From Pseudovirgaria hyperparasitica (Eukaryota > Ascomycota > Dothideomycetes > Acrospermales > Acrospermaceae), in the NCBI RefSeq assembly GCF_010093815.1, contig NW_022985550.1, forward strand, positions 1,129,074 through 1,193,073: a DNA stretch of 64,000 bases, written 5' to 3'. Shown here piece after piece: positions 37,606 to 59,600 of this stretch. The notes beneath the pieces are model-generated. The model did not search any database. It was not told the origin of the DNA and saw only the letters and a list, made by a program, of their open reading frames with translations. How positions within the stretch are numbered: position 1 is the first letter of the stretch; the number at the start of each line of letters is the position of its first letter. The position numbers and the translations under genes were made by a program.

Positions 37606-40600
37606 TCAAACGGTAACAACAGCCTCTCTAAGTCTATCCGCTTCATCTACAATCCGCAATAAAGTTTCCTTCGACAGCTCTATCCACCTTTCAACTTGCT
37701 CCCACTGCGGTACACGATTGTCAATCAAGAAGTCGAATTCCATCAGTCCCTGTCGCACACAGGATGTGACTTCAAAGACCGCTAACCCTTTTACTTTCTT
37801 TGCGCTTTCTGGATCATTTCCTGGCGGTACGCGCACTCTCTTGAAGAGGCTGTCTGTCCGCTCTAATTGCTGGAAACTGCCCAGGAAATTGAAGTTCATC
37901 TCCATGCCTTCGTAATTGAAGTAGGATTTACCGAGCGGGTGTAGATAACGCGAAGCAAAGTACGCCCAACCTTTTTGAGGTACATTTTGGATGCGCTGCG
38001 TCGTGTGTGTGATCATGCCACGGAGGTCAGCAGCGCTATGACACTGCAGCTGGATCGGATACATTGTGGTGAACCAGCCAACTGTCTGCGAAAGGTCGCT
38101 CGATACATCAAGAGGTTCGCGTCCATGCCCCTCCGTATAAACAGAGGGTAGTGTGCGATCGGGGAAGACGATACCAAAAGCATGCATAAGTGCTGCCATC
38201 ATTAGGTCCATAGGCTTGGAGTCGAAGATGTCGTTGACCCACTCCAGAAGCGCAGATGTGGCATCGGCTTGCAGGACAAATTTACGGTGTGTATATGATG
38301 ACAGGCCTACTTCTGCAGCAGTCAAGTTCCAGTAATCGAATCGTTGCGCTTCTAGCGTATAGTTCAGTGTCTTGCTGGGCTCGAGCATCTGTGCACCTTT
38401 GTGTTGGCGGCCGACCCACTCCTGGAAGCCAAGAGAGTGGACAGGAGTTGTATCCTTGCCCGAGAGGATATCTTCAAGGTCCTGGAAGATAACACGGAAT
38501 GATACAAGATCACTGACTAGATGGTTGATGGCGAGAAACAGATGTTGCCTGCCAGAGTCTTGGATATGCACCGCTGAAGTCAACGGGCCGATCTCGATGT
38601 CCACGGCATCCCGACATTTGGCAAATATACCAGGAAGACCATCCTCGGGACAATCCGAGACGGAAGTCAACTTGAACGAAGAATCAGTTTCGTTGGTAAT
38701 CCTCTGTGTCCATACTCCTGAGACTGTATGCTTCTGGAATCGTGCTCTGAGCATCGAATGGCGCGAAACAACCTTTGCCAGCGCTTGTTGTAGTGTTTCC
38801 GTGGAGAAATCCCTGCTTAGCTCTAGAAAGAAACAGATATCGAAGCAAATGTTTCCTTCTGGATGTTCATCCACAAACCACTGCTGGATTGGTGATAATG
38901 GGAAGGCAATCTCAGTCTTCTCTTCCATGTTCTCTATCTTACTTATCAGACGTGCTTTCGACTGACACGTCGCTGCCAATTTCGCTATCGTCCGTTGTGT
39001 TTGGATATCTCCTACAGCGACAGAAAGCCCCTGTGAGCGAGCAGCAGCCGCGACCTGCATTGCTGTAATAGAATCTCCGCCCATGCGGAAGAAGTCTGTA
39101 TCTACGTCCAAGGCCTCAGAATTGTTCAACACAGTCTTCCAGATTGATTCTAGTATGACCTCCGTGGCTGTACTTGCGTATCTACTGCTTCTGGATCTTT
39201 CAGATTCCAAAAGATCGCTGGCGGTCAGTTTACTCGCGATTTCACGGAGTCGTTTCCGGTCGAATTTGCCAGTGGTTGTCATTGGTATGGTATGCAAAGG
39301 GATAAACGCCGATGGAATCATATATGCAGGCACTTTTTCTGATAATCGATCCTCGATACCTTTCGCGAGGACTCTAACGGCTTCCACGTGGTCCTTAGGC
39401 AGAAGTGTGCAGTTTTTGTTGCGCCGATTAATGAAAGAAACTAGCGTTGAGTTGGTACTTCCTTTGAGCGTGACGACTTCAGAGATGACGGTGATATTGC
39501 AGTCCAGAGGCTGAGGGCTGTCTTCCGTCTGGTATCCACTGTCGCTACTGCCGCTGCTACCAGTGTAAGACTGCTCGTCTTCATTGGAGCTTGGTTCAAG
39601 TACTGTTTCTTTCGTGATTATAATGGCTTTCTTCAACGCGGCAGTAACATGTGCATCAACCTCCCCGAGTTCGACTCTTTGGCCGCGGACCTTTACTTGG
39701 CTATCTTTCCGAGCCACGTACAAGATGGATCCATCAGATTCGTATTTGACCAGATCGCCAGTCTTGTATAGCCTTCCGCGCCTACCTGAATGACCGGGGG
39801 CTCCACGAGCGAGCCACTCTGGGTCATCAATGAAAGCCTCCTTGGTCTTTTCGTCGTTGTTGTAGTAGCCGCGTCCTGTCAGAGGTCCTTCCAGCCATAA
39901 TTCTCCCACGGTACCTATAGGACAGAGTTGCTCCCCGCTGACAATCCAGGTATTTGTAGCCATGCCTCGACCAATCGTGTACTGTTGATCTTTAATCTCA
40001 CGCAGAGAAGCTGAAGTAGCCAGAACAGTACACTCGCTTGGTCCATACACAAGCCATATCTCGCACGATTGCCCAAATTTTGGGAGATCTTGAGCCCTAA
40101 ACTTTTCTCCTCCGACAAGAAGTGTCTGGAGGGTCGGAAGTAACTCAGGTGTGAAGGTCTGCACCAATGCAGGCGTGAAAAACCCGAATGTCACTCCAAA
40201 TCGAGCCATGGATGACACGGGGTCATCTCGGCGCTCAGTCTCATTGGGGACGCAAAGACAACATCCAGAGAACATTGTGAGAAGCAGGTTTGACCAGGCG
40301 AAGTCGAAGCTGTAGGAAGCGAAATCATAGATGCGTGAGGAACTGGAGATTCCGAATGTTTGAATATGGCAGTCGATGGCCGTAACGAAATTGCGGTGTG
40401 TAAGCGGCACTCCTTTGGGCTTGCCTGTGCTTCCAGATGTGAAAACCACACACAAGTCATCTGTAGAGTTCCCCGCAGGTGTCTCGAAACTTCCTACCGG
40501 ACAGCTTTTGATCGCATCGTGACTGACTACAACTGCAGGAAAGTCACCAACTCTTCTGCTCAGTTGCTGATTCTTGTCAGAAGTCAAAGTGACGATAATG

Positions 40601-43600
40601 TTAAGCTGGTCAGTGATACTACTGAGTCGTTCTCGTGGCTGTGTAACATCTAGTCCAACACCAATACCCCCAGCTTTGACGACAGCAACCATAGCAACAG
40701 ACATCCACATGGACTTCTCGAACAATAGGGGCACTGTGATACCGGAGCGGACTCCGTATTCCAGGAGCTTGATCGCTACTTGAGTTGACCAATGATCAAG
40801 TTCCGTATAGGTCATCGAGCCATCCCACGCCTCCACAGCAATGGCATGCGGGTAACGAGCAACAGTCGCGGCGATTCGTTCCGGAATCCTATCATCAAGA
40901 GCTGGCGGCAATTCCTCATTCCATTGCCAGATCTGGCTCAAGTCCTGATCCGTAACTGTCCTGATGGCAGAGAGAGCAGTGTGTCTGTACTCCGTGGTAC
41001 AGACTTGGCGTAGGACCAGCTCGAATCGCCCAAACAGGCGTCGGACGGCCTGCTCATTCAAGACAGCGGGGTCGAAGGCGGCAAGAATCTGCAGACTATT
41101 TCTGGCGAGGACGAAGTCAACCATCAGGGCAAACGTGCCAAAGCCTTCTGTACTTGTGAACTGCTCTTCATCGCTTGTGTTTTCTTCCTCGATCTTCTCG
41201 AATATATCACTACTAATGTCTAGATCTGTACCGGGCTGTACCACGATCAGAGACTGAAAGTCGCAGGCTTGCATGGCTTCATGATTGGTTTGCCGAATGC
41301 TTTGGAGTCCTGTCTGTTCGAAAGGAACCATGCAAGCTGACTGATCTTGAATCTGTTTCAGAAGAGTCTCAACGCTCGCATCCATCTGTAGGGATACTCT
41401 CACGGGAACAGTTGCGATGGTCGGTCCGACCATAGATTCCACACCCGGTACTGCCGCTTGTCGACCAGAAACAACCGCGCCAAATACTGCTTGGGAGGAG
41501 TCGCTGTCTTTGGCAGCGACTAGAGCCCAGGCTGCACGAATGACGGTTGACAGTGTGAACTCCGCAGGCACAGGTAGCATGAAGTCTGTGTTGCGACGAT
41601 ATTGCATTCTGGAGTGCGGATGATAGTTTGGTGAAGGTAATTGAGGAAACTGTTGAATATCCAGACCCCCAAACTGATGAGCCCAATACTCATGTTGGGA
41701 CTCCTTGTCGATGTTCTGGATATATCTCACGAACCCAGAAAAGGGGTAACGGGCAAGGTGAAGGCTCCCATCCTGGTTGTATGCAGTCTCAACAGCCTGT
41801 ATGATCATAGGGAGGCACCAACCATCATATACGGCGTGATGAAGCCACAGCACAAAAGTTTTGGAGCCAGTGGTGGAGTCTGCGCGTATCTCAGAGGCGT
41901 GGAGAGGACTGCCTTGCCGAACGAAACCAGACTGTAGCTCGTTTGTTTCAAAAATCCGCTCCTCTTTCAACACAACTTGTACAGTACCCTCACTGTCAAG
42001 TGTAAGAATTCTTGTCCTCAGAATGGGATTTGATAGGACTGTAGCCTCCCAGGCTTTCTTGAAGCGAGATACGTCCACGCCAGGCCGGAGCTTATAATGA
42101 AAGTCTGCGATATAGTCACCTTTGCGGCGCTCAGTGAGCGCCAGCAAGCCTTTTTGTAGAGGAGTGCAAGGGATAATATCTTCAATTTGGTCCTCTGCGG
42201 TGTCACAAAGACGCGCAGCTTCAAGTCTGAGGCCAGCAGCATTTGTAATGTCTTGCAGTAATGAGAAAGGCTGTATGGTGAGCTCGACTGACTCGGTAGT
42301 CATCACGAGCACCTGAGCCAAGTCGCATAGGCGTGGTTTCTGGAAGATAACTGGCACATTCAATGTATACCCGCGCTCACGAGCCATGCTAACAAGCCGC
42401 ATAGCATCAATTGAATCGCCGCCAATGTAGAAAAAATGGTCCGCTGCACTGATCTGCGAGACTTCTAATCCAAGAACTTCAGACCAAAGTGCTGCCAATT
42501 CAGTCTCTGTGCTCGACTGTGGTGCCACGTAGTGACATGTTTCGAATGGTTCTATCACTTGCTCCAGAGTCATCTGAGCCAAAGAATCCCGCAACTTACG
42601 GCGATCTGTCTTGCCCGTTGTCGCGGTTGTAAGGCTGCACATGGGTACATATGCCGCTGGAATCATATAGGCTGGAACTCGACCAACAATCTTTTGGTCT
42701 ATGCCCTTCAGTAGCTGATAAATGACTTGATTGTGTTCGTCTTCCGTCCAGGTATTGTCATCATCCCTAAGCAAAGTGACGAAGGAGATGAGGGAAGGCC
42801 GTGTGCTTCCAAGAAGAACGATCGCTTCTGATGTAACGTGAATCTGTGTAATAGCAGCAGACCCCCTGTCTAAGAGAGAACAATCCTCACTCGTCAGCTC
42901 TTCGGCTGCATTCGAGGTACAGATCTCGAGGGCAGTCTCCATCAAGATATTTCGAACATTCACGCTGACGTCGTCAAGTTCGACACGTTGGCCTCGAATC
43001 TTCACCTGGGAATCGATTCGGCCGCAATATATGAGTCCTCCTTTATTATTAGGGTTGTATCGTACCAGATCGCCTGTCCTGTACAGCCTCCCACTTCTTC
43101 CTGGATGGGATGCACTTCCTCTCAATAGCCATTCTGGATCCGTCACAAAAGCAGATGTTGTCTTTTCGGCATTGTTGAGATAGCCACGACCGACAAGAGG
43201 GCCTTCTAGCCAAAGCTCGCCGATTGCACCTACAGGGCAGAGTTCCCCACGATTCACGACCCATGTACATGTCTCGAGAGCATGACCAATATCTAACGGA
43301 TCATTCCTCTTTGGATCGATTCGAGCAACAGTTGTGGTAATCGTGCACTCAGAAGGTCCATACGTCACCAGGAGAGTAGCGCTGTCCGTCCACTCTAAGA
43401 ACTCTTCTGCAAGTACCGCCTCGCCACTCAAGTTTATCACTTTCAAGGATGGCACCGCAGAAGGATGAAAGAGCTTGCTGACTGTCGGCGTCAACTCAAC
43501 CCAAGTAGCATCATATCTCGCAATAGCTACTGCAGGATCATTTCTTTCATCTTCTGATGGAATGCAGAGTGTAGCACCTGCGGTGAAAGCGTTCAGTACG

Positions 43601-46600
43601 TTACTCCAGGATACGTCGAATGCGTATGATGCGAAGTCCAAGATACGAGCATCCTCTGTAATGCAAAGGGCCTTATGCCCATCGCGGATCGCTGTACTAA
43701 AATTACGATGAGTAATAGTAATACCTTTTGGTGTGCCAGTTGTGCCCGAGGTGAAAACAACATATAAGGCGTTGTCGGGTTGGACTCTCGTTTCTGATCC
43801 GAGGGAGCCAGGAGGAACAGGTAACGCCGCGACATGCTCGGCGATGATGACTTGTCCTCGAGGGAAGATTTCTTCTCCGACATTTGATCTTCGCTTACTC
43901 GAAAGGAGTACCTTTGGATCGACTTGTCGTACAATTCCTCGCAATCTTTCGAGTGGCTGATTGACATCTAGCGCCACGGAAGCCCCGCCAGCTTTCATCA
44001 CTGCAAGCATAGCTACAGGAGTCCAGTAGCTCTTCTCGAACAAGAGTGGGACGATGCTCTCTGGATCTATGAGGTGTATAAGATGGGCCGCTAGCTGTGT
44101 CGATAATGCATCGAGTTCCGTATATGTCAATTGACCGTCCCAGGCACAGACTGCCACATGGTCTGGTCGATTTCTCACAGACTGTGCAATCAATTGGTGG
44201 ACACATTTATCGACCGGGAGAGGAACTTGTCCATTCCATTTCCATATTGTGTCAAGATCGGCAGATGATGTTGCGATAACAGAAGACAGCGGCACAGAAA
44301 TGTGCTCTCCACTCTTCAGCTGTTTCAGAACGGACTCAAAGCGGGCGAATATGCGATCCACCTCAGTCGGTCGGACCACTTGCGGATCTACCGCGATTTG
44401 TATCTCGAAAGAGTTCGATGCTTGGAGGAAGCAGTCGATCGTAATTGCGTAGCTTCCGAAGCCGTTCGCGTTGCTTGACACTGGCCCATCAGTTGGGCTT
44501 TTTGAAACTTTGAAGATCTCTGTGCCACTAGTTGTATTTTCTGCCGGATTGATTGTCAGAAGAGACTGAAATCTACAGGCCTCTTCTGCATCATCACTGG
44601 CCTTTCGAATCCGTTGCAGTCCGGTCTGCTCGTATGGTACAAGCTGAACCATTTGTTCTTGTACCTGGCTGAGATAATGCTTCACGGTCTGTTCGCGTTC
44701 TAATTTGATTCTCACAGGAACCGTGGCGAGAGTTGGACCTATGATATCCTCAATACCTACAATCTCAGTAGCTTGTCGACCCGAACAAATAGCACCAAAT
44801 ACAGCTTCATTTGATGCACTATCACTGGCGACGAGAAAGGCCCACGTCGCACGGAGGAATGTTGCCATTGTAAAGTGAGATTTCGTGGTACTGTCAGAAA
44901 GATTTATGCACTGTCGGTTTATCTCAGTTGCTTGAGGATAATAGTCTGTAGATGGGAGCCTTGGATATGTCTGAGCATCTAATCCGTCAAACTGAGCTTT
45001 CCAGAAACTGTCTTGTCCCTCGATGCTGGTAATGTGCTTCACAAACCTGCCAAAAGGAGCAATGGCAGGAAATGATTTACCTTCATAGGTCTCGACAAGG
45101 GCATCAAAAATCTTTGATACAGACCAACCATCATAGAGAGCGTGATGAATCTGCCAAACGAACGTTCCGTCGTTCTCACCATTAGTCAAAACAGTAGCTT
45201 TGGATAACGGGCGTCCAAGAATCTCGGTACTTAAACCAGGATAATTTTCAGGAGTCTTTTCCAGGAACTCTAGGGCTTCCCCACTGGACAGTATGACCTG
45301 CGACATCCCTTCTCCGGGTAGGTTGACAATATAAGTTCTGAGTATTGGTATATGGGCCACAACTTTATTCCAGGCATCTCCAAGGCGCGAAAGATCCACA
45401 TGGCTTCTCAGCTCATATGAGAATGTGGCGACATAGTCTCCCTCCCTGCGCGCAGTCAAAGCTAAGAGGCCCTCTTGCAACGGTGTACATGGAAGGATAT
45501 CTTCAATATCTGCTGCCCTTACGTTGCAAAGGGATGCGGCCTTGATCACAACCTCTTCGAGACAGTTGCTGGAGTTTAGAAGAGAAAACGGCTCCGGGTC
45601 TTTCGACACTGGTAATGGTGGCTCTTTGTCGCGAGCAACAGCAGCAAGCTGCGAAAGTTGCGGTGTTCGGAAAATCTGCGCGACTGTGACTTTAATGCCT
45701 TGACGTTGAGCAGCACTGACTACTCGCATAGCGTCTATGCTATTTCCACCTATCTGGAAGAAGTCGTCATCGATACTGATCTGAGTCTTGTCTCTTCCTA
45801 GGACTTCTGCCCACAAGGCTGCCAGTTGGATTTCCTTGCTCGTTACAGGTTGTCGCAATTCCCGTGACGATAGCTTCTCAGCCGTGATTTCATCCAAAGT
45901 GAGACTGCTCGCCAACTGTTGAAGTTTCTTCTTGTCCGCTTTGCCGGTTGCCGTGAGTGCGATCTCATGGAGTGGGATACATGCTGTAGGGATCATGTAT
46001 ACTGGTACCCGTTGGCGGAGCTGACTCTCCAGCCTGCGCACCAGAATTTTCACAGCAGCATCATGCTCATAAGTTGTCCAAGAGGTACCGACTCCTTGCT
46101 TCAGGTTGATGAACGCAACAAGGGAGACCTGAGAGCTTCCTTTCAGCATTACAGCTTCTGCCATGACATTGATTTGTGTCGTGGTCTTGATATGTGATTC
46201 GTCTTGATCCAACTCTTGCTGGAGCACAGCTTTGATATGATGTTCTACTTCGCCAAGTTCAATTCGTTGTCCCCGAATCTTGGTTTGTTGATCTCTGCGT
46301 CCGATGAATACCAGACCACCGTTATCATTATACCGGACTAGATCTCCAGTTCTGTATAGCCGACCTCGTCGACCAATACGATTTGGGCCACCCTTTAGCA
46401 ACCACGGAGGGTCCTCTACAAAAACAGCATTGGTCTTCTCCGGATTGTTAAGATAGCCTCGACCTACGAATGGACCTTCTAGCCATAGTTCGCCAACGGT
46501 ACCGACAGGACACAGCGCATCCCCGCGAGCATTGACAATCCATGCATTGGTACCAAAATTATGACCAATACCCTCGCTCTGATGAGATGATTGGTCAATG

Positions 46601-49600
46601 GGAAGACAAGTAGTACAAATCGTCACCTCACTAGGACCGTAGGTAACGAGGACCTGTGCGTCTGCAAACCAGTGACGGAAGTCTTCGAAGCAAATGAACT
46701 CTCCACCCATGTTTAGAACTCGCAGCGAGGGTACAGAGGATGGTTCGAGAAGTTTGGCTACAGTTGGTGTCAAGTCAACATAGGTAGCACTGAACTTGGC
46801 TATAGCCAGTCCAATATCGCTGCGTCGATCGTCCTCACTAGGAATGCACAGTGTTGCGCCAGAACTGAATGCATTAAGGAAGTTTGACCACGAGACATCG
46901 AATGCATATGACGCGAAATCAAATATGCGGTGATCTTCAGTGAACTTCAGAGTGTCCTTCATATAGCATTCTTGGGCAGCCGTTGCGAAGTTTCCATGTG
47001 TGATAACAACGCCTTTTGGAATGCCAGTAGTGCCAGAGGTGAATATAATGTAAAGAGCATTCTTGGATTGAATGCTTGGCCATTCCATACTCGAACCCAT
47101 AGTCTGTGGGGGTTGTTGAAGAGTATTGTTTTCGACAATGATGACTGGTCCAGCGGATAGTTTCGATGCAAGAGTCCTATTCGATGCGGAGCAAACAAGA
47201 ACTTTCATGTTACTGACTTGGTTGATGATTGAATGTAATCGCTCTTCAGGCTGACTGATGTCTAGAGCTACAGATGCTCCTCCAGCCTTGAGAACTGCGA
47301 GCATGGCGATGGGCGTGAACATGCTTTTCTCGAACACAAGAGGTACGACCACTTCGGGACCAACACCATAATTATGAACAAGATCAACAGCTAACTTGGT
47401 AGAAAGTGCGTCAAGTTGTGTATACGTGAGTTTTCCATCCCACGCGTCAACGGCTAGAGAATCTGGACGGCGGCTGATAGTAGAGGCAATAATATCTCTC
47501 ACATTTCCGTCAATGTATTTGGGACAAGTCTGGTTCCAGTCCCAGATTTGATTGAGGTCCTCGTCTAGAACCAGTCTGATATCCTCAATTTTAGTCGCTT
47601 GGTTTGTCTCTGAGCAGATTTGTCGTAGTATTAGCTCGAATCTCTGAGCAAGGCGCTTGATCTGCTTTTCACTAATGACGACCGGATCAAAGGTTACCTG
47701 TAGCAGCATCCCGTCATCTCTCAAGAAACAGTCGAGAGCCAGACTATGCGTTCCATAACCTCCTGAAGACGACATGCCAATCTCCATGTTATGGTCTTCG
47801 TGCATGTCAAGCAATGGTCGAACCGACTGTATCATTTTCTTGGGATGGACAATCAAAAGGGACTGGCTATCGCATGCTAACTGAGCTTCCTTACTGGCCT
47901 GGCGAATGTTCTGAAGCCCAGTCTGCTCATAAGGAATCATATGGACAGCTTGCTGCTGCACCTGGGCCAAAATTTCTGCAACGGTCAGCTCAGCACTTGT
48001 TCCAATGCGCAAAGGTACAGTATTGAGGGTAGGCCCAAGTATGTCCTCTATACCCGTGATTGCAGCTTGACGACCGGAAACCACAGCACTGAACACTGCT
48101 TCGTCAGATCCAGTATCGCTGGCTAAGAGAATTGCCCATGCTGCACGTATTGCGATGGAGCTTGTCGCAATTGTTTTTCCCCTGGGCAGTGTCAAGTCGT
48201 AGCGGTAGATATGAGAGGGGTATGGATGGTATTCAGGGGATGGGAGGCTCGGAAATTGTTGCGCGTTCAGTCCATCGAACATAGTTTCCCAAAAGAGCAT
48301 GGTCTTTGTAGGATCCAAGTTCACTGTGTGATGGACAAATGTTGCGAATGAGGGTGATTTGGGTATGCAATGTCTAGCATAAAGCTGTCCCACCCGGGCG
48401 ATGATCTTGGGTAAAGACCATCCATCGTAAACAGCATGGTGCACTTGAACTTCCAGTTTTGCGACGTGGTCAGTTTCGTTCGTGTTTATTCGCGCGAACA
48501 GCAGCGGTTGGCCTAGCATACCAATCGATTTCAAAGAATTTGCGGAATTTTCCGTAAGGTGGAGCGCGAGTGATTCATCGTTTTTAAGCACGACCTGAAC
48601 AAGTCCGATGCCGGTCGTGTTGACGATACGAGTACGGAGAATTGGCGTCGTCGCGATAGTGTCATTCCAAGCTTGCTGTAGCCGTGTCATGTCGACGTCG
48701 GAACGAACATTATAAGTGAACTTGGCAATATAGTCTCCCTCTCGACGTGCTGTGAGAGCCATGAGACCTGATTGCGACGAAGTGCAAGGAAGCACATCCT
48801 CAATACAGTCGGCTGTAACATTGCACAAAAGGGATACAGTCTCTCGAACGTCAATAGGATTCGTGGGCAACAGAGAAAAAGGAGTCACCTCCAACTCCAT
48901 GGTCGGTGGAGCTGTACTTGCAATTGTGGCAAGATCACAAACACGAGCGTGCTCAAAGACGTCCAGAGCATTGAAATACAATCCAGACTTCCTAGCTAGG
49001 CTAACAAGTCTCATTGCATCGATTGAATCGCCGCCGATCCGAAAGAAATTGTCATCTGCACTGATTGAATCAATTTCGCGCATCAAGATTACCGCCCAAA
49101 GGGCGATTAGTTGCGTCTCGACAGCAGTCTCAGGTAGGATGATGCGGCGAAGGGAGTGCTTAGACTTGTAATCAAGTTCCTGTGAAGTCTTCCCCTGGAG
49201 TGAAGCCCGAAGCTTTCGCCTATCTAACTTACCAGCTACAGACACGGCCAAGTTAGATACACTTACATACATAGAAGGGATCATGTATGTGGGCACTTTG
49301 GCTCGTAATTCGTTGTTGACATTGTCGGTCATGTCAGCGATAGCTTCTTCTTGTTGCTCTTGGGGGAGAGGGGCTGCGTCTTGGGCACTTGAGATCGAGA
49401 TAAAAGCAACAAGTACCGAGCGTTTGTTGCCATCCAGCGTAATGGAATCAGCCGTGATATGAAGGAAATTCGTGGCCATACCCCTGGAATTCATTTCCGC
49501 TAGGAAAGCATTGCGTACGTGCCACTCAACTTCGCCCAGCTCGACACGCTGGCCACGGATCTTGACTTGACTGTCATCTTTGCGTCTAATGTAGACTAGA

Positions 49601-52095
49601 CTGCCATCTGGATTGTACTTGACAAGATCGCCGGTCTTGTAAAGCTTACCGGCTCTGCCAACAGACGTGGTAGATGGACCACCTTGAAGCAGCCACCACG
49701 GGTCTTTGATAAACGATATATCAGTGCGCTCAGGATCGTGTAGGTATCCGCGACTGACGAGTGGTCCTTCTAGCCATAGCTCCCCAATTGCTCCTACAGG
49801 GCACAGCTGGTTGCCTTTGACAATCCAGGCATTACTTGCGATAGGGAAGCCTATCCCAGTTTCTCCATTCGCAAGTTGAGCACATGTAGTCGTGATGGTA
49901 GCTTCCGCAGGACCGTAGGTAATTACCATCTCAACATGATCTCGCCAATTTTCGAAGTCCTTGACCACAACTTTCTCGCCACCGAGATTGAGCTTCTTGA
50001 GACACGGGATCTTGGTTGGGTCTATCGTCCGAGCCACAGTGGGTGTGAGATGTACGTAAGAGGTACGATACTTCTGTATTGCCTGTTCCAGATCTTGACG
50101 GCGTTCGTCCTCCGATGGAACCACGAGACAAGCCCCGGTAACGAGTGTGTTGACGAAGTTCGACCAGGCCACATCAAAAGAATACGATGCAAAGTCGAGC
50201 ACTCGATCATCTTCTGCAAAAAGCTGTCGTTCTCGACCAGCCTGGACAAAAGTGCAGAGGTTGCTATGCGTTACCACAACACCTTTAGGTACGCCGGTAC
50301 TACCGGAGGTAAACTGAATGTACGCTGCGGTGGACAGATTCGTGGCAGAGAGCACAGCTGATAGAGTTGATCCTTGCTCGATGGTATCTCGATCAATGAT
50401 CATTACAGTACCTGCATGGGCAGAGTGTGCAAGTACATTGTTGTTGCTTGAAGCAAGTGCAACAACAGGTTGTGTCGTCCCCATCAGACGAGATAAACGC
50501 TCTATAGGTTGAGTAGTATCGACAGCGAGGCAGATCCCACCAGCTTTCATAACGGCAAGCATGGCCACTGGCATCCATACGGACTTTTCGAAGAGTAGCG
50601 GTACCACATTCTCAGCCGTCACACCTTGGGCGACTAGCTTCGTCGCTACTGTGTTCGATAACTCATCCAGTTGTCTATAAGTTAATTCGCCGTCCCAGGC
50701 ATGTATTGCGGTCGCGTCAGGCCGTCTTCGAGCAGTATCGGAGATCAAGTCGTGCACACATCTGTTATGGGACACAGGTACAGAGTCGTTCCATCGCCAT
50801 ATATCTACTAGATCGTCGTTGATAGCCACGTTGATGTTGCATATCATCTTTTCCTGGGATTGCGCAAGTTGATGTATTACTTGCGTGAGTTGCTGAAGAA
50901 TTCTTTTGACCTGCCATTCGGCGATGACGTTGCTGTCATACCAGGCGTCTATGTCAATGCCATCTTTTTCGAGAGAGCATTGAATCGTAAGAGCCTGGCT
51001 AGCGACTCCGTGATCAGCCTCTTGACGACGCCAGCTACCGATGGATGAGTCAAGTTTCATGGTGCTTTTTGAGGGCTGGACAATGAGTAGCGTTTGGAAT
51101 CCACTAGCAATACTGCCTTCTTCACTGACACGTGAGATACTGCGTAGACCCAGATGCTCGTAAGGTTTTGAGGTCTCGATCTTCGTTTGTGAGTATCTAA
51201 GAAGATCGTACACTCTGGTTTCGTCTGTCAACACCAGACGTGCAGGAAGTGTGGAGATTGTGCATCCCACAGTCGACTTCGGGACGAAGTCTCGCCCGGC
51301 AACGATAGTGCCGAAGCAAACATCATTCGTACCAGTATGGGTTGCAATAACTATAGCCAGCGCAGCTCGAATGAGTGCTGTTCTTGAGACACCTTCAACC
51401 TTGGGTATCGCCGGACAGAGATGACAACAAGTCGAGGTTGCCAGAGGCTTATATTCCTGAGTAGGTAATTCAGGGAAAATAACCGAGTCCAGCCCATCCA
51501 GTTCATCCTTCCAGAATTTTTGGGCATCTTCAATACTCCTTTCTTGCAAATTGGTGATAAAATTTCGGAAAGGTGGGACTTCTATAGCCGGCTTTCCATT
51601 ATATATTGAACAGACTGCTTTTGTCATGTTCTTGAAAGACCATCCGTCATAGATTGCGTGATGAATCGTCCACACAAAAGAGCGGTGGTTAGAGTGGGTG
51701 TTCACTATAAGCGAGTACCTAGCCAATGGCTCTCCAAGAGACCAAGTGAAAGACTTCGCGGCCTTAGCACATTCCTCGAAAGATTCGTAACGACTCCATT
51801 CAAACGAAGTGTCAAGGACCACCTGAATCAAGCCACTTTCCTCGGTATCGATGATTCGAGTTCGGAGAACATCTGTTAGGTTGACGTATTGCTCAACTGC
51901 TGACTGGAGAGTCGCTAGGTTGACTTCTGGGGACAAGTCTAGCACGATATGCCTAATCGGTGCTCGAGACCCCCGACTTGTTTGAGCAATGAAGCCCTCC
52001 TGCATAGCAGAGCAAGGAAAGCTGTCTTGTATAGCAGCAGGGCTACAGCCAAAAGCTTTGGCGAGCTCCTGAGCAGTTGGTGGTGATGAAGTCAT
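37606..52095 (-). CDS. Four-module non-ribosomal peptide synthetase, (C-A-T)x4-E
   Basis: An unbroken frame of 4829 residues. The start is the ATG at 52095 (MTSSPPTAQELAKAFG). Domains, with approximate residues: C1 10-435 (IHHAIYDGWS, ~144); A1 445-960 (FTSGSTGVPKG, ~593); T1 985-1055 (GGDS, ~1020); C2 1080-1515 (VHHAVYDGWS, ~1218); A2 1535-2050 (~1685); T2 2085-2150 (GGNS, ~2115); C3 2180-2610 (IHHALYDGWS, ~2316); A3 2630-3160 (~2781); T3 3190-3260 (~3225); C4 3285-3715 (LHHAVYDGWC, ~3419); A4 3735-4270 (~3885); T4 4305-4375 (~4339); terminal E 4390-4829 (NHLVSDLVSF ~4523, EGHGRE, VGWFTTMYP). Every C domain keeps the catalytic His and every T domain its Ser. It activates and joins four amino acids, probably epimerising the last. 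There is no thioesterase, reductase or terminal condensation domain. Confidence 0.96.
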   Translation of the reverse strand: MTSSPPTAQELAKAFGCSPAAIQDSFPCSAMQEGFIAQTSRGSRAPIRHIVLDLSPEVNLATLQSAVEQYVNLTDVLRTRIIDTEESGLIQVVLDTSFEWSRYESFEECAKAAKSFTWSLGEPLARYSLIVNTHSNHRSFVWTIHHAIYDGWSFKNMTKAVCSIYNGKPAIEVPPFRNFITNLQERSIEDAQKFWKDELDGLDSVIFPELPTQEYKPLATSTCCHLCPAIPKVEGVSRTALIRAALAIVIATHTGTNDVCFGTIVAGRDFVPKSTVGCTISTLPARLVLTDETRVYDLLRYSQTKIETSKPYEHLGLRSISRVSEEGSIASGFQTLLIVQPSKSTMKLDSSIGSWRRQEADHGVASQALTIQCSLEKDGIDIDAWYDSNVIAEWQVKRILQQLTQVIHQLAQSQEKMICNINVAINDDLVDIWRWNDSVPVSHNRCVHDLISDTARRRPDATAIHAWDGELTYRQLDELSNTVATKLVAQGVTAENVVPLLFEKSVWMPVAMLAVMKAGGICLAVDTTQPIERLSRLMGTTQPVVALASSNNNVLAHSAHAGTVMIIDRDTIEQGSTLSAVLSATNLSTAAYIQFTSGSTGVPKGVVVTHSNLCTFVQAGRERQLFAEDDRVLDFASYSFDVAWSNFVNTLVTGACLVVPSEDERRQDLEQAIQKYRTSYVHLTPTVARTIDPTKIPCLKKLNLGGEKVVVKDFENWRDHVEMVITYGPAEATITTTCAQLANGETGIGFPIASNAWIVKGNQLCPVGAIGELWLEGPLVSRGYLHDPERTDISFIKDPWWLLQGGPSTTSVGRAGKLYKTGDLVKYNPDGSLVYIRRKDDSQVKIRGQRVELGEVEWHVRNAFLAEMNSRGMATNFLHITADSITLDGNKRSVLVAFISISSAQDAAPLPQEQQEEAIADMTDNVNNELRAKVPTYMIPSMYVSVSNLAVSVAGKLDRRKLRASLQGKTSQELDYKSKHSLRRIILPETAVETQLIALWAVILMREIDSISADDNFFRIGGDSIDAMRLVSLARKSGLYFNALDVFEHARVCDLATIASTAPPTMELEVTPFSLLPTNPIDVRETVSLLCNVTADCIEDVLPCTSSQSGLMALTARREGDYIAKFTYNVRSDVDMTRLQQAWNDTIATTPILRTRIVNTTGIGLVQVVLKNDESLALHLTENSANSLKSIGMLGQPLLFARINTNETDHVAKLEVQVHHAVYDGWSLPKIIARVGQLYARHCIPKSPSFATFVHHTVNLDPTKTMLFWETMFDGLNAQQFPSLPSPEYHPYPSHIYRYDLTLPRGKTIATSSIAIRAAWAILLASDTGSDEAVFSAVVSGRQAAITGIEDILGPTLNTVPLRIGTSAELTVAEILAQVQQQAVHMIPYEQTGLQNIRQASKEAQLACDSQSLLIVHPKKMIQSVRPLLDMHEDHNMEIGMSSSGGYGTHSLALDCFLRDDGMLLQVTFDPVVISEKQIKRLAQRFELILRQICSETNQATKIEDIRLVLDEDLNQIWDWNQTCPKYIDGNVRDIIASTISRRPDSLAVDAWDGKLTYTQLDALSTKLAVDLVHNYGVGPEVVVPLVFEKSMFTPIAMLAVLKAGGASVALDISQPEERLHSIINQVSNMKVLVCSASNRTLASKLSAGPVIIVENNTLQQPPQTMGSSMEWPSIQSKNALYIIFTSGTTGIPKGVVITHGNFATAAQECYMKDTLKFTEDHRIFDFASYAFDVSWSNFLNAFSSGATLCIPSEDDRRSDIGLAIAKFSATYVDLTPTVAKLLEPSSVPSLRVLNMGGEFICFEDFRHWFADAQVLVTYGPSEVTICTTCLPIDQSSHQSEGIGHNFGTNAWIVNARGDALCPVGTVGELWLEGPFVGRGYLNNPEKTNAVFVEDPPWLLKGGPNRIGRRGRLYRTGDLVRYNDNGGLVFIGRRDQQTKIRGQRIELGEVEHHIKAVLQQELDQDESHIKTTTQINVMAEAVMLKGSSQVSLVAFINLKQGVGTSWTTYEHDAAVKILVRRLESQLRQRVPVYMIPTACIPLHEIALTATGKADKKKLQQLASSLTLDEITAEKLSSRELRQPVTSKEIQLAALWAEVLGRDKTQISIDDDFFQIGGNSIDAMRVVSAAQRQGIKVTVAQIFRTPQLSQLAAVARDKEPPLPVSKDPEPFSLLNSSNCLEEVVIKAASLCNVRAADIEDILPCTPLQEGLLALTARREGDYVATFSYELRSHVDLSRLGDAWNKVVAHIPILRTYIVNLPGEGMSQVILSSGEALEFLEKTPENYPGLSTEILGRPLSKATVLTNGENDGTFVWQIHHALYDGWSVSKIFDALVETYEGKSFPAIAPFGRFVKHITSIEGQDSFWKAQFDGLDAQTYPRLPSTDYYPQATEINRQCINLSDSTTKSHFTMATFLRATWAFLVASDSASNEAVFGAICSGRQATEIVGIEDIIGPTLATVPVRIKLEREQTVKHYLSQVQEQMVQLVPYEQTGLQRIRKASDDAEEACRFQSLLTINPAENTTSGTEIFKVSKSPTDGPVSSNANGFGSYAITIDCFLQASNSFEIQIAVDPQVVRPTEVDRIFARFESVLKQLKSGEHISVPLSSVIATSSADLDTIWKWNGQVPLPVDKCVHQLIAQSVRNRPDHVAVCAWDGQLTYTELDALSTQLAAHLIHLIDPESIVPLLFEKSYWTPVAMLAVMKAGGASVALDVNQPLERLRGIVRQVDPKVLLSSKRRSNVGEEIFPRGQVIIAEHVAALPVPPGSLGSETRVQPDNALYVVFTSGTTGTPKGITITHRNFSTAIRDGHKALCITEDARILDFASYAFDVSWSNVLNAFTAGATLCIPSEDERNDPAVAIARYDATWVELTPTVSKLFHPSAVPSLKVINLSGEAVLAEEFLEWTDSATLLVTYGPSECTITTTVARIDPKRNDPLDIGHALETCTWVVNRGELCPVGAIGELWLEGPLVGRGYLNNAEKTTSAFVTDPEWLLRGSASHPGRSGRLYRTGDLVRYNPNNKGGLIYCGRIDSQVKIRGQRVELDDVSVNVRNILMETALEICTSNAAEELTSEDCSLLDRGSAAITQIHVTSEAIVLLGSTRPSLISFVTLLRDDDNTWTEDEHNQVIYQLLKGIDQKIVGRVPAYMIPAAYVPMCSLTTATTGKTDRRKLRDSLAQMTLEQVIEPFETCHYVAPQSSTETELAALWSEVLGLEVSQISAADHFFYIGGDSIDAMRLVSMARERGYTLNVPVIFQKPRLCDLAQVLVMTTESVELTIQPFSLLQDITNAAGLRLEAARLCDTAEDQIEDIIPCTPLQKGLLALTERRKGDYIADFHYKLRPGVDVSRFKKAWEATVLSNPILRTRILTLDSEGTVQVVLKEERIFETNELQSGFVRQGSPLHASEIRADSTTGSKTFVLWLHHAVYDGWCLPMIIQAVETAYNQDGSLHLARYPFSGFVRYIQNIDKESQHEYWAHQFGGLDIQQFPQLPSPNYHPHSRMQYRRNTDFMLPVPAEFTLSTVIRAAWALVAAKDSDSSQAVFGAVVSGRQAAVPGVESMVGPTIATVPVRVSLQMDASVETLLKQIQDQSACMVPFEQTGLQSIRQTNHEAMQACDFQSLIVVQPGTDLDISSDIFEKIEEENTSDEEQFTSTEGFGTFALMVDFVLARNSLQILAAFDPAVLNEQAVRRLFGRFELVLRQVCTTEYRHTALSAIRTVTDQDLSQIWQWNEELPPALDDRIPERIAATVARYPHAIAVEAWDGSMTYTELDHWSTQVAIKLLEYGVRSGITVPLLFEKSMWMSVAMVAVVKAGGIGVGLDVTQPRERLSSITDQLNIIVTLTSDKNQQLSRRVGDFPAVVVSHDAIKSCPVGSFETPAGNSTDDLCVVFTSGSTGKPKGVPLTHRNFVTAIDCHIQTFGISSSSRIYDFASYSFDFAWSNLLLTMFSGCCLCVPNETERRDDPVSSMARFGVTFGFFTPALVQTFTPELLPTLQTLLVGGEKFRAQDLPKFGQSCEIWLVYGPSECTVLATSASLREIKDQQYTIGRGMATNTWIVSGEQLCPIGTVGELWLEGPLTGRGYYNNDEKTKEAFIDDPEWLARGAPGHSGRRGRLYKTGDLVKYESDGSILYVARKDSQVKVRGQRVELGEVDAHVTAALKKAIIITKETVLEPSSNEDEQSYTGSSGSSDSGYQTEDSPQPLDCNITVISEVVTLKGSTNSTLVSFINRRNKNCTLLPKDHVEAVRVLAKGIEDRLSEKVPAYMIPSAFIPLHTIPMTTTGKFDRKRLREIASKLTASDLLESERSRSSRYASTATEVILESIWKTVLNNSEALDVDTDFFRMGGDSITAMQVAAAARSQGLSVAVGDIQTQRTIAKLAATCQSKARLISKIENMEEKTEIAFPLSPIQQWFVDEHPEGNICFDICFFLELSRDFSTETLQQALAKVVSRHSMLRARFQKHTVSGVWTQRITNETDSSFKLTSVSDCPEDGLPGIFAKCRDAVDIEIGPLTSAVHIQDSGRQHLFLAINHLVSDLVSFRVIFQDLEDILSGKDTTPVHSLGFQEWVGRQHKGAQMLEPSKTLNYTLEAQRFDYWNLTAAEVGLSSYTHRKFVLQADATSALLEWVNDIFDSKPMDLMMAALMHAFGIVFPDRTLPSVYTEGHGREPLDVSSDLSQTVGWFTTMYPIQLQCHSAADLRGMITHTTQRIQNVPQKGWAYFASRYLHPLGKSYFNYEGMEMNFNFLGSFQQLERTDSLFKRVRVPPGNDPESAKKVKGLAVFEVTSCVRQGLMEFDFLIDNRVPQWEQVERWIELSKETLLRIVDEADRLREAVVTV

Positions 52096-54361: not shown

Positions 54362-55996
54362 TCAGTGTGTTTTGACGGTAAAAAGTAGTCCGCCACATAT
54401 CACAGACCATAGCCCTATCAAATCAAAGGGCATTCCCACCCAAAAAGTACCATGTCTCATACCCCACCCAAATGCTGCAGCCAGTATTGGAGCTCCAAGC
54501 ATCGATCCAACAATGTCTATAACGCTGATGACACTAAACAATGTTGCTAGGCGGCTGCTCGGAACAAGGGACGCTGCGAGGCTCCGCAGAAAAAGAGCAG
54601 TGCCACTACCTAGAGTACTCACCGTCATGCTAACAGCTACAAACAAAGTGTTCGTTGCCATTCCCGTTCCAGTCCAGCCTGCAGCTTGCAGGAAGATGGA
54701 GACTCGAGCAAGGTATAGATCCTTAACTTGCGTGCTCCATCTTTGTTCTCGCGTCATATACGTTGACAGGCGTGGTAATACCACAAGGAATAGCAGAATG
54801 CTACAACCAGCTCGGAGAGAAAAGAAAAGTGTTGCCTGTGAGATTGTGAAACCGAGGCGGCGGCTCAAAAATTGCACCTGCAGCTGGGAGGTTCCTGAGA
54901 TCAATAAATGCTCGGTGTACGGCAACAGAATGATCATTAAGGTCCAGTACTTGAACACGAAGTTCTTGGTCTGTTGCAGCCACGAATCTTCATAGACACT
55001 TGAGTCGTCGGTAATTTGTTCTCTGTTGGGTGTGCAAGGCTGGGTTTGAGGATATTCAGTCCCTGTTTCCATCAGACACTCGTTGCACGCCGGAGACGTG
55101 TTTATTATGTCTTGTGCCTCGTGAGGGTCATGCTCTTGATTTTTCAACGTCTCTGGAACGAACATGGCCAGAAATAGAGCGACCAGAAGAAATAAAAGAC
55201 CTGCGGAACTAGGGAGCCAAGGGCTAACTCGCATAGACCATGCGGACAGCGGTGGGATTAGTAACAATGGGAATAGAGACGCTGCTCCGAGGCGGAAGAA
55301 CGCGTTTGTCTGTTCTTCTTGCGGCGTCACATCTGATACAACCACAAATATGAGGTTGTAGAGGACCGTAGTACTTCCAGCGAAAAGACCGTTCAAAGAT
55401 GATAGTAGGGTCCAATAAATGCTTTGTTGTTGCCAGAACCAGCACACGTACTCGTACCAGACCCATCGTGCAAGAGACGAGACAAAGCCTGATATTAAGA
55501 AAGGTTTCCGTCCAAACTTATCGGCTGCCATTCCAAAGGGGAGGGCAAGAAGAAGGCTCATAAGGCTATCGAATATTTGTTGATATGAAGCCAAATTCGC
55601 CATGTCTGACTGAATGGCGTCGACTTTGCACCAGGACTCATCAACACCATTCACGGCACCTGCGGCAACCGTGTCTCTCCCATGGAGAATCTTGCTGGGG
55701 TCATACTTTTCGTAGAACCTATAGCAGAATATAGACTCCACGATACGGGTTCTGGGGGCTTCAATCAGTTGCTCGCCGCAGACTTGCAAGAAGACAATAG
55801 CGAACAGTAGAACAAGGGTTCGCCTTGGCCTATCTCGAATCTTTATATCATCGGGCTTGAACACCCCTGCCGTGCCAGACTGTTCATTGGACGATAGTAA
55901 TATGCTGGACTCTGTAGGTTCCTCGAGTTGGTGCTGTACTCTTCTTCTGGAAGATTTATGGACGCTAGTGTGCCTGACTGAGTTGATGTGCACCAT
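54362..55996 (-). CDS. MFS transporter of the NRPS locus
   Basis: An intronless frame of 544 residues from the ATG at 55996 (MVHINSVRHTSVHKSS); the frame is open a little further upstream but has no ATG there. A hydrophilic N-terminus of about 60 residues precedes helix 1 (TLVLLFAIVFLQVCGEQL). A long outside loop with two cysteines follows, then the loop 2-3 signature GMAADKFGRKP. Eleven to twelve membrane helices are apparent, divided by a central hydrophilic loop (about 290-350). The layout matches fungal MFS carriers often found beside secondary-metabolite genes. Likely role: export of the peptide or import of a precursor at the plasma membrane. It is divergent from the ABC transporter. 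No distinct substrate motif is seen. Confidence 0.85.
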   Translation of the reverse strand: MVHINSVRHTSVHKSSRRRVQHQLEEPTESSILLSSNEQSGTAGVFKPDDIKIRDRPRRTLVLLFAIVFLQVCGEQLIEAPRTRIVESIFCYRFYEKYDPSKILHGRDTVAAGAVNGVDESWCKVDAIQSDMANLASYQQIFDSLMSLLLALPFGMAADKFGRKPFLISGFVSSLARWVWYEYVCWFWQQQSIYWTLLSSLNGLFAGSTTVLYNLIFVVVSDVTPQEEQTNAFFRLGAASLFPLLLIPPLSAWSMRVSPWLPSSAGLLFLLVALFLAMFVPETLKNQEHDPHEAQDIINTSPACNECLMETGTEYPQTQPCTPNREQITDDSSVYEDSWLQQTKNFVFKYWTLMIILLPYTEHLLISGTSQLQVQFLSRRLGFTISQATLFFSLRAGCSILLFLVVLPRLSTYMTREQRWSTQVKDLYLARVSIFLQAAGWTGTGMATNTLFVAVSMTVSTLGSGTALFLRSLAASLVPSSRLATLFSVISVIDIVGSMLGAPILAAAFGWGMRHGTFWVGMPFDLIGLWSVICGGLLFTVKTH

Positions 55997-56623
55997 GACC
56001 TTACTTTCGACTGGTTTAAGGGCAGGAGGCGATAGGTTTTGCGACAAAAGGGTTGCCTAACACAGCATAGAATTCATGAGAGTGATAGGGTTCGATAGCA
56101 AATGCCTCCGGAGCTCCTTTGTAGTTGCACTGTGGTGACTGTGAGTCTGTGCCCTCACGAACGTTCGAGGGTTTAAGGGATTATGCAGATTAGTTAGTCC
56201 CTGTGAAGGATCACGCTATGTTATAGCCACCCTCGCACCGCGATTTACGCTAGGGACCAGCCGACAGCCTTGGCGTTCCGAACTCTATGGATCCTTCAAT
56301 AGGCCCCCAAGTAGGTGCCGGCGTTTGCACCTGCCCGGCTTACGGATTCCAACATAACAATGAACACCTGCAGACTGCGATGCTACCGTAGCAAATGCAC
56401 CACGATTTTACCACATCTTAGCTCAATATCAAACTCACGTGATATGTGAAGAAGGATGGGGGTTTGGTTTGGCACCCTAGACTCGACATGATCTCTGCGT
56501 TCTTCCTGCGGTCCCTCTGGAATGACTTGTGGGCATCCGGATGCTTATTTGTCCTCAAGAAGACGGTTTTTTAACGAGTATCCAGAAAGATCGAAACCTT
56601 CTAGTCTGAGGAATCATTTCACA
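55997..56623. promoter_or_regulatory. Shared divergent promoter of the two transporter genes
   Basis: These 627 bp lie between the MFS and ABCC starts. Two palindromes stand out: CTCCGGAG at 56106-56113, which contains inverted CGG-type half sites, and TCACGTGA at 56435-56442, an E-box/bZIP-type site. Shared control of the two transporters is an inference from the head-to-head layout. Confidence 0.5.
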
Positions 56624-59600
56624 ATGTCCTGTCAAGACTCAAGCTTCGGTCCTACAATCACAGGATGTCGCTCCGGATTCGACTTCACTCTGTACTTTCA
56701 GTATGTGATATTATCCGCACTGCCGTCATTGGTTTTCATATTCGCAGCACTGGCGAGGATATTCCAATTATGGCAGCGAAAACCTGTTTTGGGTGGTCGG
56801 AGATTGCAGACACTGAAGCTGGTTCGCATAATGTAATACCTCTAGCGTAGTCCAATACTAAATCCAGTCAGATCACCAATTTATTATTTTTTGCTGCACG
56901 ACCAGCAATACTGGGGACTGGACTCACGTACTCTGGATCATTACGGTGGAGCTTCTCACTGTCCGTTGGCTTATCAATATTTTGCGCTCTTCTCTTCATC
57001 GTTCTGTCTTTTCTTGAACACGAGAAAAGCATTCGTCCATCTACGATCCTCGTCACGTATATGGCCTTCACGATATTGTGCGATGCGGTCTGTATCCGGA
57101 CCTATTGGCTTATGCAAGTTCCTGTCGGCTTGTTCAGCTCCCTGGTTACTTCCACTGCGCTGAAACTTGTGATCATGAGCCTCGAGAGTATCGAGAAGAG
57201 GAAATATATTCCTGTAGGAATGCGGCCTCAGAATCCGGAAATGACGAGCGGTATAGCTGCTATCATCACCTTCTTTTGGCTGAATCCTTTGTTGTGGATC
57301 GGTGCACAACGAGATCTTCGTTCTTGTGACCTGTACAACCTAGACTCGGAACTTGGGACTGACGATGCTGCTGCCAAGTTTGCGCGAGTTTGGAAAGACA
57401 CAGCTCAGCGACATATTAAGGCCCGAAGCATTCGGTCACTTTTATGGATGCTGAAGTGGAAGATATTGGGTACAATTCCTCCTCGGATTACTCTCCTAAT
57501 CCTCACGGTATGCTCACCTCTCGCCCTAAAGAATCTCTTGAATTATTTGCAAGAACATGAGCGGTATTCGTCTGCTCTAGGCTACGGCTTCATATTAGCT
57601 TTTGCACTGATCTACCTCGGTATAGCGGTGTCCACAGGTCTCTACTGGTATAACCACTTTCGTGTCATAACAATCGTACGAGCGTGTCTGGTATCAGCAA
57701 TCAGTAGCAAAGCTGGAACTATCGACAATGCTTCCGCAAAAGATCCACAGGCCACCTTAACTCTTATGAGTTCAGATGTGGAGCGTGTTGTAGAGGGACT
57801 ACGCACGGCGCATGAGCTTTGGGCCAATGTTCTACAAGTCGCTGTCGCAACATACCTCCTCTCAAGAGAAGTAGGCGTTGCCTGCGTAATACCTGTTCTT
57901 GTAGCAATCATGGCATCTACTGTATCTACTTGGGTCAGCAATCTTGCGAATGGACGACAAATTGACTGGATGGCCCTTTTGCAATCGCGAATCGGAGTAA
58001 GCTCAAATACTTTACTTGCCATCAAAAGTGTAAAGATGCGAGGCCTAGAATCAACACTCCGTGGAATTATCGTACGACTCCGCCGCGCGGAACTACACGA
58101 GGCCAATCGATTCCGTTTTATGGGTGTATTCACGGTCTTCTTTGGCTACGCGCCAGAGTTGCTTTCGCCAGTCCTGACCTTTCTGGTCGTATTAGTGCGC
58201 ACAGGTTCACTGGACGCCACCACGGCATTTACAACGCTTTCGTTGATCCAAATTCTGGCCCAGCCACTAAATCTATCTTTGCAGAATCTGCCTTTCTTTG
58301 CATCGACGTTTGGGTGCTTGGAGCGAATTGATGAATATCTCGAGTCAACTGACTGGATAGATCCTCGAGCTAGATCTGAGAATGAGAAGCACTCGGTACC
58401 GATCAGAGATCATTCAACTCAGGAAAAACTACCTCGCGAATCATTTGACCATAGTTCGTACGTCAGCTCTAAGGCCATTGCTTTCGAAGGCGCGTCATTT
58501 GCGTATGATGGTCAGCCTGAGACACTCAGGGACATCGTGGCAAGTGTTGCATTTGGAGACCTAGTTTGTATCATCGGCCCTGTAGCTTGTGGCAAAACGA
58601 CGTTCTGCAAAGCAATTCTCGGTGAAATTGCTCCCAAACTTGGCAGTTGCTACATATCCAGCCCGCATGGTAAACGCTCAGTCTCATACTGTAGCCAAGA
58701 GCCTTTCATCAGGAATCGCACGGTCAAAGAGAATGTCATCATGTACTCAGATTTCGATGCCAGCTGGTACGAGACCGTCAGTCAAGCATGTGGACTAACC
58801 AGAGAGTCATCTGGTCTATCAGAAGGAGATATGACCATTGCCGGCAGCGATGGTGCAAGGCTAAGTGGCGGTCAAAAGCAAAGGATTGCGGTCGCACGGG
58901 CACTATACGCTCGCAATTCTATAATGATATGCGACGACGTGCTTAGTGGACTAGACGGTACAAGCGCTTGGAATCTCTTCCAGGGTGTTTTTGGCGCCGA
59001 TGGTCTGGCGAAGAAGCTTGGAATAACAGTGGTCTTTGCGACGCATACAGTTCGCTTTCTTCCGTACGCAGATCATGTCATCGTCCTGAGACCGGGCGGA
59101 ACTATCAGTGAGTCAGGAACTTATGACTCTTTGCGGTCCTCTTCAGCATACGTACAAGCCCTCGCAACCTACGACACCACAGAAGTTGAGCTGGCCAAAA
59201 GTGTGGATCCATTGACGCCCTCTTCAGATGGTAAACTTCATGAAGGTGGAGACTCACAACAAACATCGTCGACTAGACTACAAGGCGAGTGGTCCACCTA
59301 TGCCTACTATTTCAACACCATGAAGTCGTACACGCTTATAATTCTTATCATCTTTGCGATTCTCGTGGCTGGCTTCTACGTAGTTCCGTCCTACTGGTTG
59401 AAGGTATGGACAAGCGGTAGTATTGGTAGTGTCGGAGAGTACTCATACTGGGGCGTGTACACATGCTTCCTCTGCACTGCGCTCTTCTCTCTGCCAATCT
59501 TCGAGTATGTTTCCCTCATCCAGGCTGCAACGCAAGCGGGCGTTGCACTGCACGACAGGATCCTACAGTCCGCACTAAATTCTTCGTGGTCACACTTCTC

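What the first reader, a model, noticed from the sequence alone, without database searches (positions are those of the whole stretch)
37606..52095. Tetramodular NRPS ending in an epimerisation domain with no visible release domain
The order (C-A-T)x4-E is read from intact core motifs. In bacteria, proteins that end in E hand the chain to a partner synthetase in trans. Fungal single-protein NRPSs normally end in a terminal C, reductase or thioesterase domain. No partner NRPS or thioesterase lies in this window. Either a partner is encoded elsewhere, or the N-terminal C1 domain receives the chain back from T4 for a recursive or cyclising step, or release is spontaneous. C1 at the very start, with no upstream module, fits the second option. 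This is inference.
Basis: partly seen in the sequence, partly recalled or inferred. Interest (0 to 1): 0.72.

Follow-up and report, generated by a model that had tools for sequence, protein, structure and literature searches.

The report
Fungal peptide synthetase ending in E
A fungus carries a complete four-step peptide-building enzyme that stops at an unusual, altered epimerase-like domain with no usual release domain and no partner detected elsewhere in its genome, so how the peptide leaves the enzyme is an open, testable question.

Summary
In detail: one open frame (ATG 52095 to stop 37606, minus strand) encodes (C-A-T)x4-E, with no further NRPS domain behind it. (1) No partner synthetase was detected: the 40 condensation-family hits in the 35 Mb genome lie in this gene (5), two hybrid-like genes, one other multimodular NRPS, siderophore-like genes, an A-T-C protein and a transposon-broken relic. 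(2) C1 looks intact but belongs with C domains that follow T; grouping it with fungal after-E domains is rejected (AU p 0.0067), which counts against the recursive model. (3) New: the terminal E is not a standard epimerase. It is E by fold and descent and keeps the second His, Asp, Glu and Arg of the active site, but lacks the first His of HHxxxD and the Tyr of FNYLG, each present in 132 of 132 aligned bacterial E domains and in the three other stop-free E domains of this genome. The premise that it hands on a D residue is therefore weak. Most likely the four-residue chain is offloaded at T4 without a second synthetase, by the altered E-like domain or by a free-standing hydrolase. Release is inferred, not shown. 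A new variant of a known kind.

The parts
37606..52095 (-). NRPS gene, 4829 codons from the first ATG plus stop, no intron needed, (C-A-T)x4-E
50800..52038 (-). C1, N-terminal condensation domain, HHAIYDGWS intact, groups with C domains that follow T
49174..50757 (-). A1
48913..49122 (-). T1 (GGDSIDAM)
47545..48810 (-). C2
45883..47502 (-). A2
45625..45837 (-). T2 (GGNSIDAM)
44245..45513 (-). C3
42550..44202 (-). A3
42298..42510 (-). T3 (GGDSIDAM)
40930..42192 (-). C4
39205..40887 (-). A4
38956..39165 (-). T4 (GGDSITAMQ), resembles the three pre-E carriers of the contig 10 NRPS
37630..38922 (-). terminal E-family domain with altered active site (Asn for first His at 38524-38526, Phe for Trp at 38497-38499, Phe for Tyr at 37885-37887; second His, Asp, Glu, Arg kept)
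54362..56047 (-). MFS transporter, possible cluster member
57061..60312 (+). ABC transporter (second nucleotide-binding part continues at 60415-60882), possible cluster member

Best explanation
This is an intact fungal NRPS that works as a self-contained four-module line, not as the first half of a two-protein line. Shown: domain order, intact ORF, C1 class, altered E, no detected partner. Inferred: the modules build a four-residue chain; C1 is idle or structural, or is primed from a free carrier; at T4 the altered E-family domain no longer works as an ordinary epimerase that feeds a D-specific acceptor; the chain leaves T4 without a second synthetase, either through this domain (it keeps His, Asp, Glu and Arg) or through a free-standing hydrolase, and may be exported by the neighbouring ABC or MFS transporter.
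For: Intact order and frame. Of the 40 PF00668 hits none was placed in another stop-free NRPS gene that opens with a full D-accepting C domain (the start of the contig 12 gene was not resolved). C1 in the after-T clade with 100/99 support; union with after-E C domains rejected, p-AU 0.0067; with two terminal C domains 0.0115; with bacterial DCL 0.000322. E lacks residues present in 132 of 132 bacterial E domains and in 3 of 3 other stop-free E domains here; the relic pieces that cover these sites also have HH (2 of 2) and FNYLG (1 of 1). Deviations over 64 columns conserved in bacteria are 18, against 14, 14 and 17 in the three controls of the same genome (bacterial median 1, maximum 9), so the domain has drifted only slightly more than those. 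T4 keeps the pre-E carrier signature.
Against: No release activity of any E domain is shown by my calls. Tyr to Phe and His to Asn are mild changes, and second His, Asp, Glu and Arg are kept, so E could still epimerise. The genome search is six-frame, capped and on 59 contigs, so a partner could be missed; a C-A fragment on contig 13 escaped the PF00668 search. No orthologue from another fungus could be examined, so the changes could be strain-specific.
Confidence: 0.55

Rival explanations
1. The E is active; a four-residue peptide with a D residue at its C-terminus is cut off by a free-standing thioesterase or other hydrolase coded elsewhere.
For: Second His, Asp, Glu, Arg and Asn of the E active site kept. 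A free-standing 347-codon thioesterase-family frame exists on contig 11. T4 has the carrier signature of pre-E modules.
Against: First His and the FNYLG Tyr are missing. No thioesterase match in the 20 window frames given to Pfam, and no link of the contig 11 gene to this cluster.
Confidence: 0.25
2. The line once ended E-C; the after-E domain was lost and E is an idle remnant, the product leaving slowly or by chance.
For: In fungi 3121 of 3982 E domains precede a CT-DCL domain (PMC10212144, passages); the three E domains on contig 10 are all followed by C. Loss of the acceptor would relax E.
Against: E is full length in an intact 14.5 kb frame and, over 64 conserved columns, departs only slightly more often than the other E domains of the genome (18 against 14, 14, 17). 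No remnant of a C domain behind E was found.
Confidence: 0.25
3. C1 takes the chain back from T4 for a recursive or ring-closing step.
For: C1 is at the very start with intact HHxxxDG and few deviations (3 of 23 columns).
Against: Grouping C1 with after-E C domains or with the two terminal C domains tested is rejected; joining T4 to module 1 would lengthen, not release, the chain (inference). In beauvericin synthetase the N-terminal C1 has no condensation activity but its removal stops expression (PMC5457498, passages).
Confidence: 0.05
4. A partner NRPS coded elsewhere accepts the chain from E.
For: Two-protein lines exist in fungi: fusaoctaxin NRPS9 plus NRPS5 (PMC6389888, PMC6563249, passages). 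In bacteria proteins ending in E are common (43 of 144 E domains were last in their frame, some possibly cut by the locus edge).
Against: No candidate detected; contig 19 protein starts with A; the contig 25 copy is broken; the contig 13 frame has an A domain behind what reads as the second half of a C domain with a stop between, and no carrier found.
Confidence: 0.08

Closest known systems
Fungal multimodular NRPS with E and after-E C domains (HC-toxin synthetase type, PMC10212144 passages; NRPS4/fusahexin by recalled order; here the contig 10 gene)
   Same: C, A, T, E families, T4 pre-E signature, E clade
   Different: No C domain behind the E, E active site altered, starts with a full C domain
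IvoA of Aspergillus nidulans (E followed by a hydrolysing terminal C; PMC11546977 and PMC12751119, passages)
   Same: Fungal line whose end involves E and non-TE release
   Different: IvoA keeps a terminal C domain behind E; this protein has none
Beauvericin/bassianolide synthetases (PMC5457498, passages)
   Same: N-terminal full C domain with nothing upstream
   Different: Those have an N-methyltransferase and a terminal C domain; neither was found here
Fusaoctaxin NRPS9 + NRPS5 (PMC6389888, passages)
   Same: Shows that a fungal line can be primed in trans by a free A-T protein
   Different: NRPS5 ends in a reductase; no such neighbour found here
E domains judged inactive in some glycopeptide synthetases, and the truncated E of NRPS5 module 2
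   Same: E-family domain without expected epimerisation (PMC1894796, PMC6563249, passages)
   Different: Those are internal; this one is terminal and full length

Membership tests
Nonribosomal peptide synthetase | repeated C-A-T modules with carrier serine motif | tested here: met
Epimerisation (E) domain | E clade and E fold | tested here: met
Epimerisation (E) domain | intact HHxxxD and FNYLG active-site motifs | tested here: not met
   N for first H, F for Y; 132 of 132 bacterial and 3 of 3 stop-free fungal controls have H and Y
Epimerisation (E) domain | EGHGRE motif and second His | tested here: met
Epimerisation (E) domain | epimerase activity | not testable with these tools
   needs enzyme assay
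D-accepting (after-E, CT-DCL) C domain, for C1 | groups with C domains that follow E | tested here: not met
   (p-AU 0.0067)
LCL-position (after-T) C domain, for C1 | groups with C domains that follow T | tested here: met
   100* SH-aLRT, 100/99
Starter C domain, for C1 | groups with known starter C domains | not tested
   no characterised fungal starter C sequences were at hand
Fungal terminal C (CT) release domain | present at C-terminus | tested here: not met
Thioesterase or reductase release in cis | PF00975 or PF07993 domain at C-terminus | tested here: not met

The most novel reading that the evidence does not exclude
The terminal E-family domain has been converted into the release domain: loss of the Tyr and first His of the epimerase site, with His, Asp and Glu kept, leaves a condensation-family active site that offloads the tetrapeptide by hydrolysis or ring closure, a role otherwise held in fungi by terminal C domains.
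Probability: 0.2. Interest if true: 0.75.

Novelty: new variant of a known kind. Interest (0 to 1): 0.45.

Why it matters
Product prediction for fungal NRPS relies on the last domain: a terminal C suggests a ring, TE or R a linear product. A line that ends in an altered E has no such rule. If the E-like domain releases the chain, another member of the condensation superfamily would join the known fungal release domains, and a terminal E could no longer be read as a sign of a missing partner.

Tried and rejected
Hidden extra domain behind E through an intron: rejected, about 463 bases to the next likely gene start and no domain hit. Carrier or A domain upstream of C1: none found in the window. 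Relic on contig 25 as a working partner: rejected, 5 of its 6 PF00668 hits carry stops and it is split by AT-rich stretches with RIP-type dinucleotide bias. First C of the relic as orthologue of window C1: rejected, its pieces are mostly closest to the relic's own C2 or to window C4. RIP as cause of the E changes: unlikely, codons AAC and TTC are not reached from His or Tyr codons by C-to-T or G-to-A changes (inference). Contig 19 A-T-C protein as acceptor: rejected, begins with A. Contig 13: an A domain behind what reads by eye as the second half of a C domain, with a stop between, no carrier found; not a working acceptor as it stands, though an intron is possible. Genome contigs as a source of fungal orthologues: the collection is bacterial and archaeal. 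A-domain pocket letters were read by motif but gave no confident substrate. Fold search: VIA-align re-ranks Foldseek's own hits only; the TqaA terminal C was not among the 50 rows shown, which excludes nothing.

Papers: searches returned 0 papers for terminal E wording in fungal NRPS; one search found 4 papers, one fungal, whose Table 5 (passages) lists 16 multimodular NRPS of A. hancockii, 0 of 16 ending in E. Searches gave lists from which 12 papers in all were opened as passages. The library is open access only; this does not show that no such enzyme is in print. Mutational data for GrsA E residues (Stachelhaus and Walsh 2000) were seen only as a reference; residue numbers and roles are recalled. 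The numbering is consistent: in the GrsA chain one offset puts His753, Asp757, Glu892, Arg896, Asn975 and Tyr976 at the motif residues.

Limits of the control sets: bacterial loci were fetched by the peptide patterns HSMLRARF and [RQ]TVGWFTT, 80 of 590 relatives kept, and E domains were called by EGHG or VGWFT motifs, so conservation of those motifs is biased; HH and Tyr were not used for selection. Of 144 bacterial E domains, 132 passed the length filter of 400-480. HHxxxD was present in 144 of 144; the strict pattern NY[LMI]G in 120 of 144; 23 others were printed and all read NYH or TYH, the last one passes a looser pattern that also asks for Tyr. The first tree had 99 rows: 29 fungal plus 70 of 324 bacterial domains; left out were the contig 10 N-terminal fragment, both contig 12 C domains and the broken relic domains. 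One bacterial row labelled LCL by the motif rule (L095) fell in the E clade. The second tree had 42 rows (27 fungal, 15 bacterial), without the two hybrid genes. Domain ends of some fungal rows were extended in frame and may include intron letters.

Full report
Observation. The window holds one 14.5 kb open frame on the minus strand, ATG 52095 to stop 37606. Pfam finds 4 AMP-binding, 5 condensation-family and 4 carrier stretches, and domain models made from the protein order them (C-A-T)x4-E. Behind the stop there are 463 bases before the likely ATG (37142) of a frame with a DUF6604 match on the same strand. No other NRPS domain was found in the window. MFS (54362-56047) and ABC (57061-60312 and 60415-60882) transporter frames lie on the upstream side; further out are frames that look like general cell genes (bromodomain acetyltransferase, Sas10, Mod(r)).

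Whole genome. The window is in an unnamed 35.0 Mb, 59-contig genome. PF00668 gives 40 hits: 5 in the window gene, 12 on contig 10, 7 on contig 3, 6 on contig 25, 5 on contig 22, 2 on contig 12, 1 on contig 19, 1 each in two genes of contigs 2 and 8. By domain models contig 10 reads A-T-E-C-A-T-C-A-T-E-C-A-T-C-A-T-E-C-T-C-T behind a partial C, like NPS4/fusahexin synthetases (likeness recalled). Contigs 3, 12 and 22 look like siderophore synthetases (recalled; repeated T-C ends on 3 and 22). The contig 2 and 8 genes have T-C-A and a reductase-family hit and look like PKS-NRPS hybrids; their PKS part was not tested. Contig 19 codes A-T-C. Contig 25 is a relic that reads C-A-T-C, insert, A-T-E-C-A-T-C, insert, A-T-E; 5 of its 6 hits carry stops, and the inserts have the AT-rich dinucleotide bias of RIP. 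No stop-free gene that opens with a full D-accepting C domain was detected. The search is six-frame and scores only the best candidates: an A domain on contig 13 that follows what reads as half a C domain, with a stop between and no carrier found, was picked up only through its A domain. Thioesterase PF00975 gives 5 hits, one a free-standing 347-codon frame on contig 11.

C1. A tree of 99 C and E domains (29 from this genome, 70 sampled of 324 bacterial ones from 80 fetched loci) places C1 in a 7-row clade (100*) with C2-C4, two after-T C domains of contig 10 and the stop-free C2 of the relic. The three after-E C domains of contig 10 form their own clade. A careful tree of 42 rows agrees (100/99). 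Holding C1 with the after-E domains is rejected (p-AU 0.0067), with two terminal C domains too (0.0115), with bacterial DCL (0.000322); whether C1 lies just outside the other six is open (0.401). C1 keeps HHAIYDGWS and departs at 3 of 23 conserved C columns, C2-C4 at 4, 3 and 4. So it looks catalytically intact, but of the class that takes an L-type donor by position. Its branch is long (1.27).

Mechanism. Bacterial-style handover needs a D-accepting partner; none was detected. The recursive model needs C1 to accept from T4-E; its class speaks against it. In fungi 3121 of 3982 E domains precede a CT-DCL domain, and penicillin-type synthetase has E then TE (PMC10212144, passages); one review writes that downstream of an E there is always a DCL domain (PMC11546977, passages). 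This protein has neither. What remains is release at T4 by the E-like domain itself, by a free-standing hydrolase, or by chance. I hold the self-contained line as most likely (0.55) and leave the releasing agent open; the E-like domain as release domain is the boldest reading (0.2). For C1, precedents are: no condensation activity but needed for expression (beauvericin synthetase, PMC5457498, passages), or priming in trans by a free A-T protein (fusaoctaxin, PMC6389888, passages).

Limits. No fungal orthologue could be fetched; organism unnamed; assembly and single codons taken as given; no expression or product data. The reading that E lost or changed its epimerase activity rests on conservation, with residue roles recalled.

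Noticed in passing
G000 contig 25, 24422-87402 (L019-L023, L029-L033): Relic of a second tetramodular NRPS, C-A-T-C-A-T-E-C-A-T-C-A-T-E in order, split by AT-rich RIP-type inserts; it also starts with C and its last visible domain is an E, cut off.
   Followed up: partly
L117 (G000 contig 40, around 7541-7694): The only 5.8S rRNA hit found lies in an rDNA stretch that by eye looks heavily C-to-T mutated (TA-rich), as if RIP had hit an rDNA copy.
   Followed up: no
L119, 886-2799 minus, and L120 (G000 contig 13): Frame with an A domain behind what reads as the second half of a C domain, a stop between them, and no carrier domain found.
   Followed up: partly
L118, 283-1326 minus (G000 contig 11): Free-standing thioesterase-family frame, a candidate trans hydrolase.
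   Followed up: partly
G000 contig 19, 47011-50442 (L026): Single-module A-T-C protein whose A-T part is among the nearest in the genome to window A1-T1 (39% identity).
   Followed up: partly
window 34637-37310 minus: Frame with a DUF6604 match, and a long frame without Pfam match behind it, directly downstream of the NRPS on the same strand.
   Followed up: no
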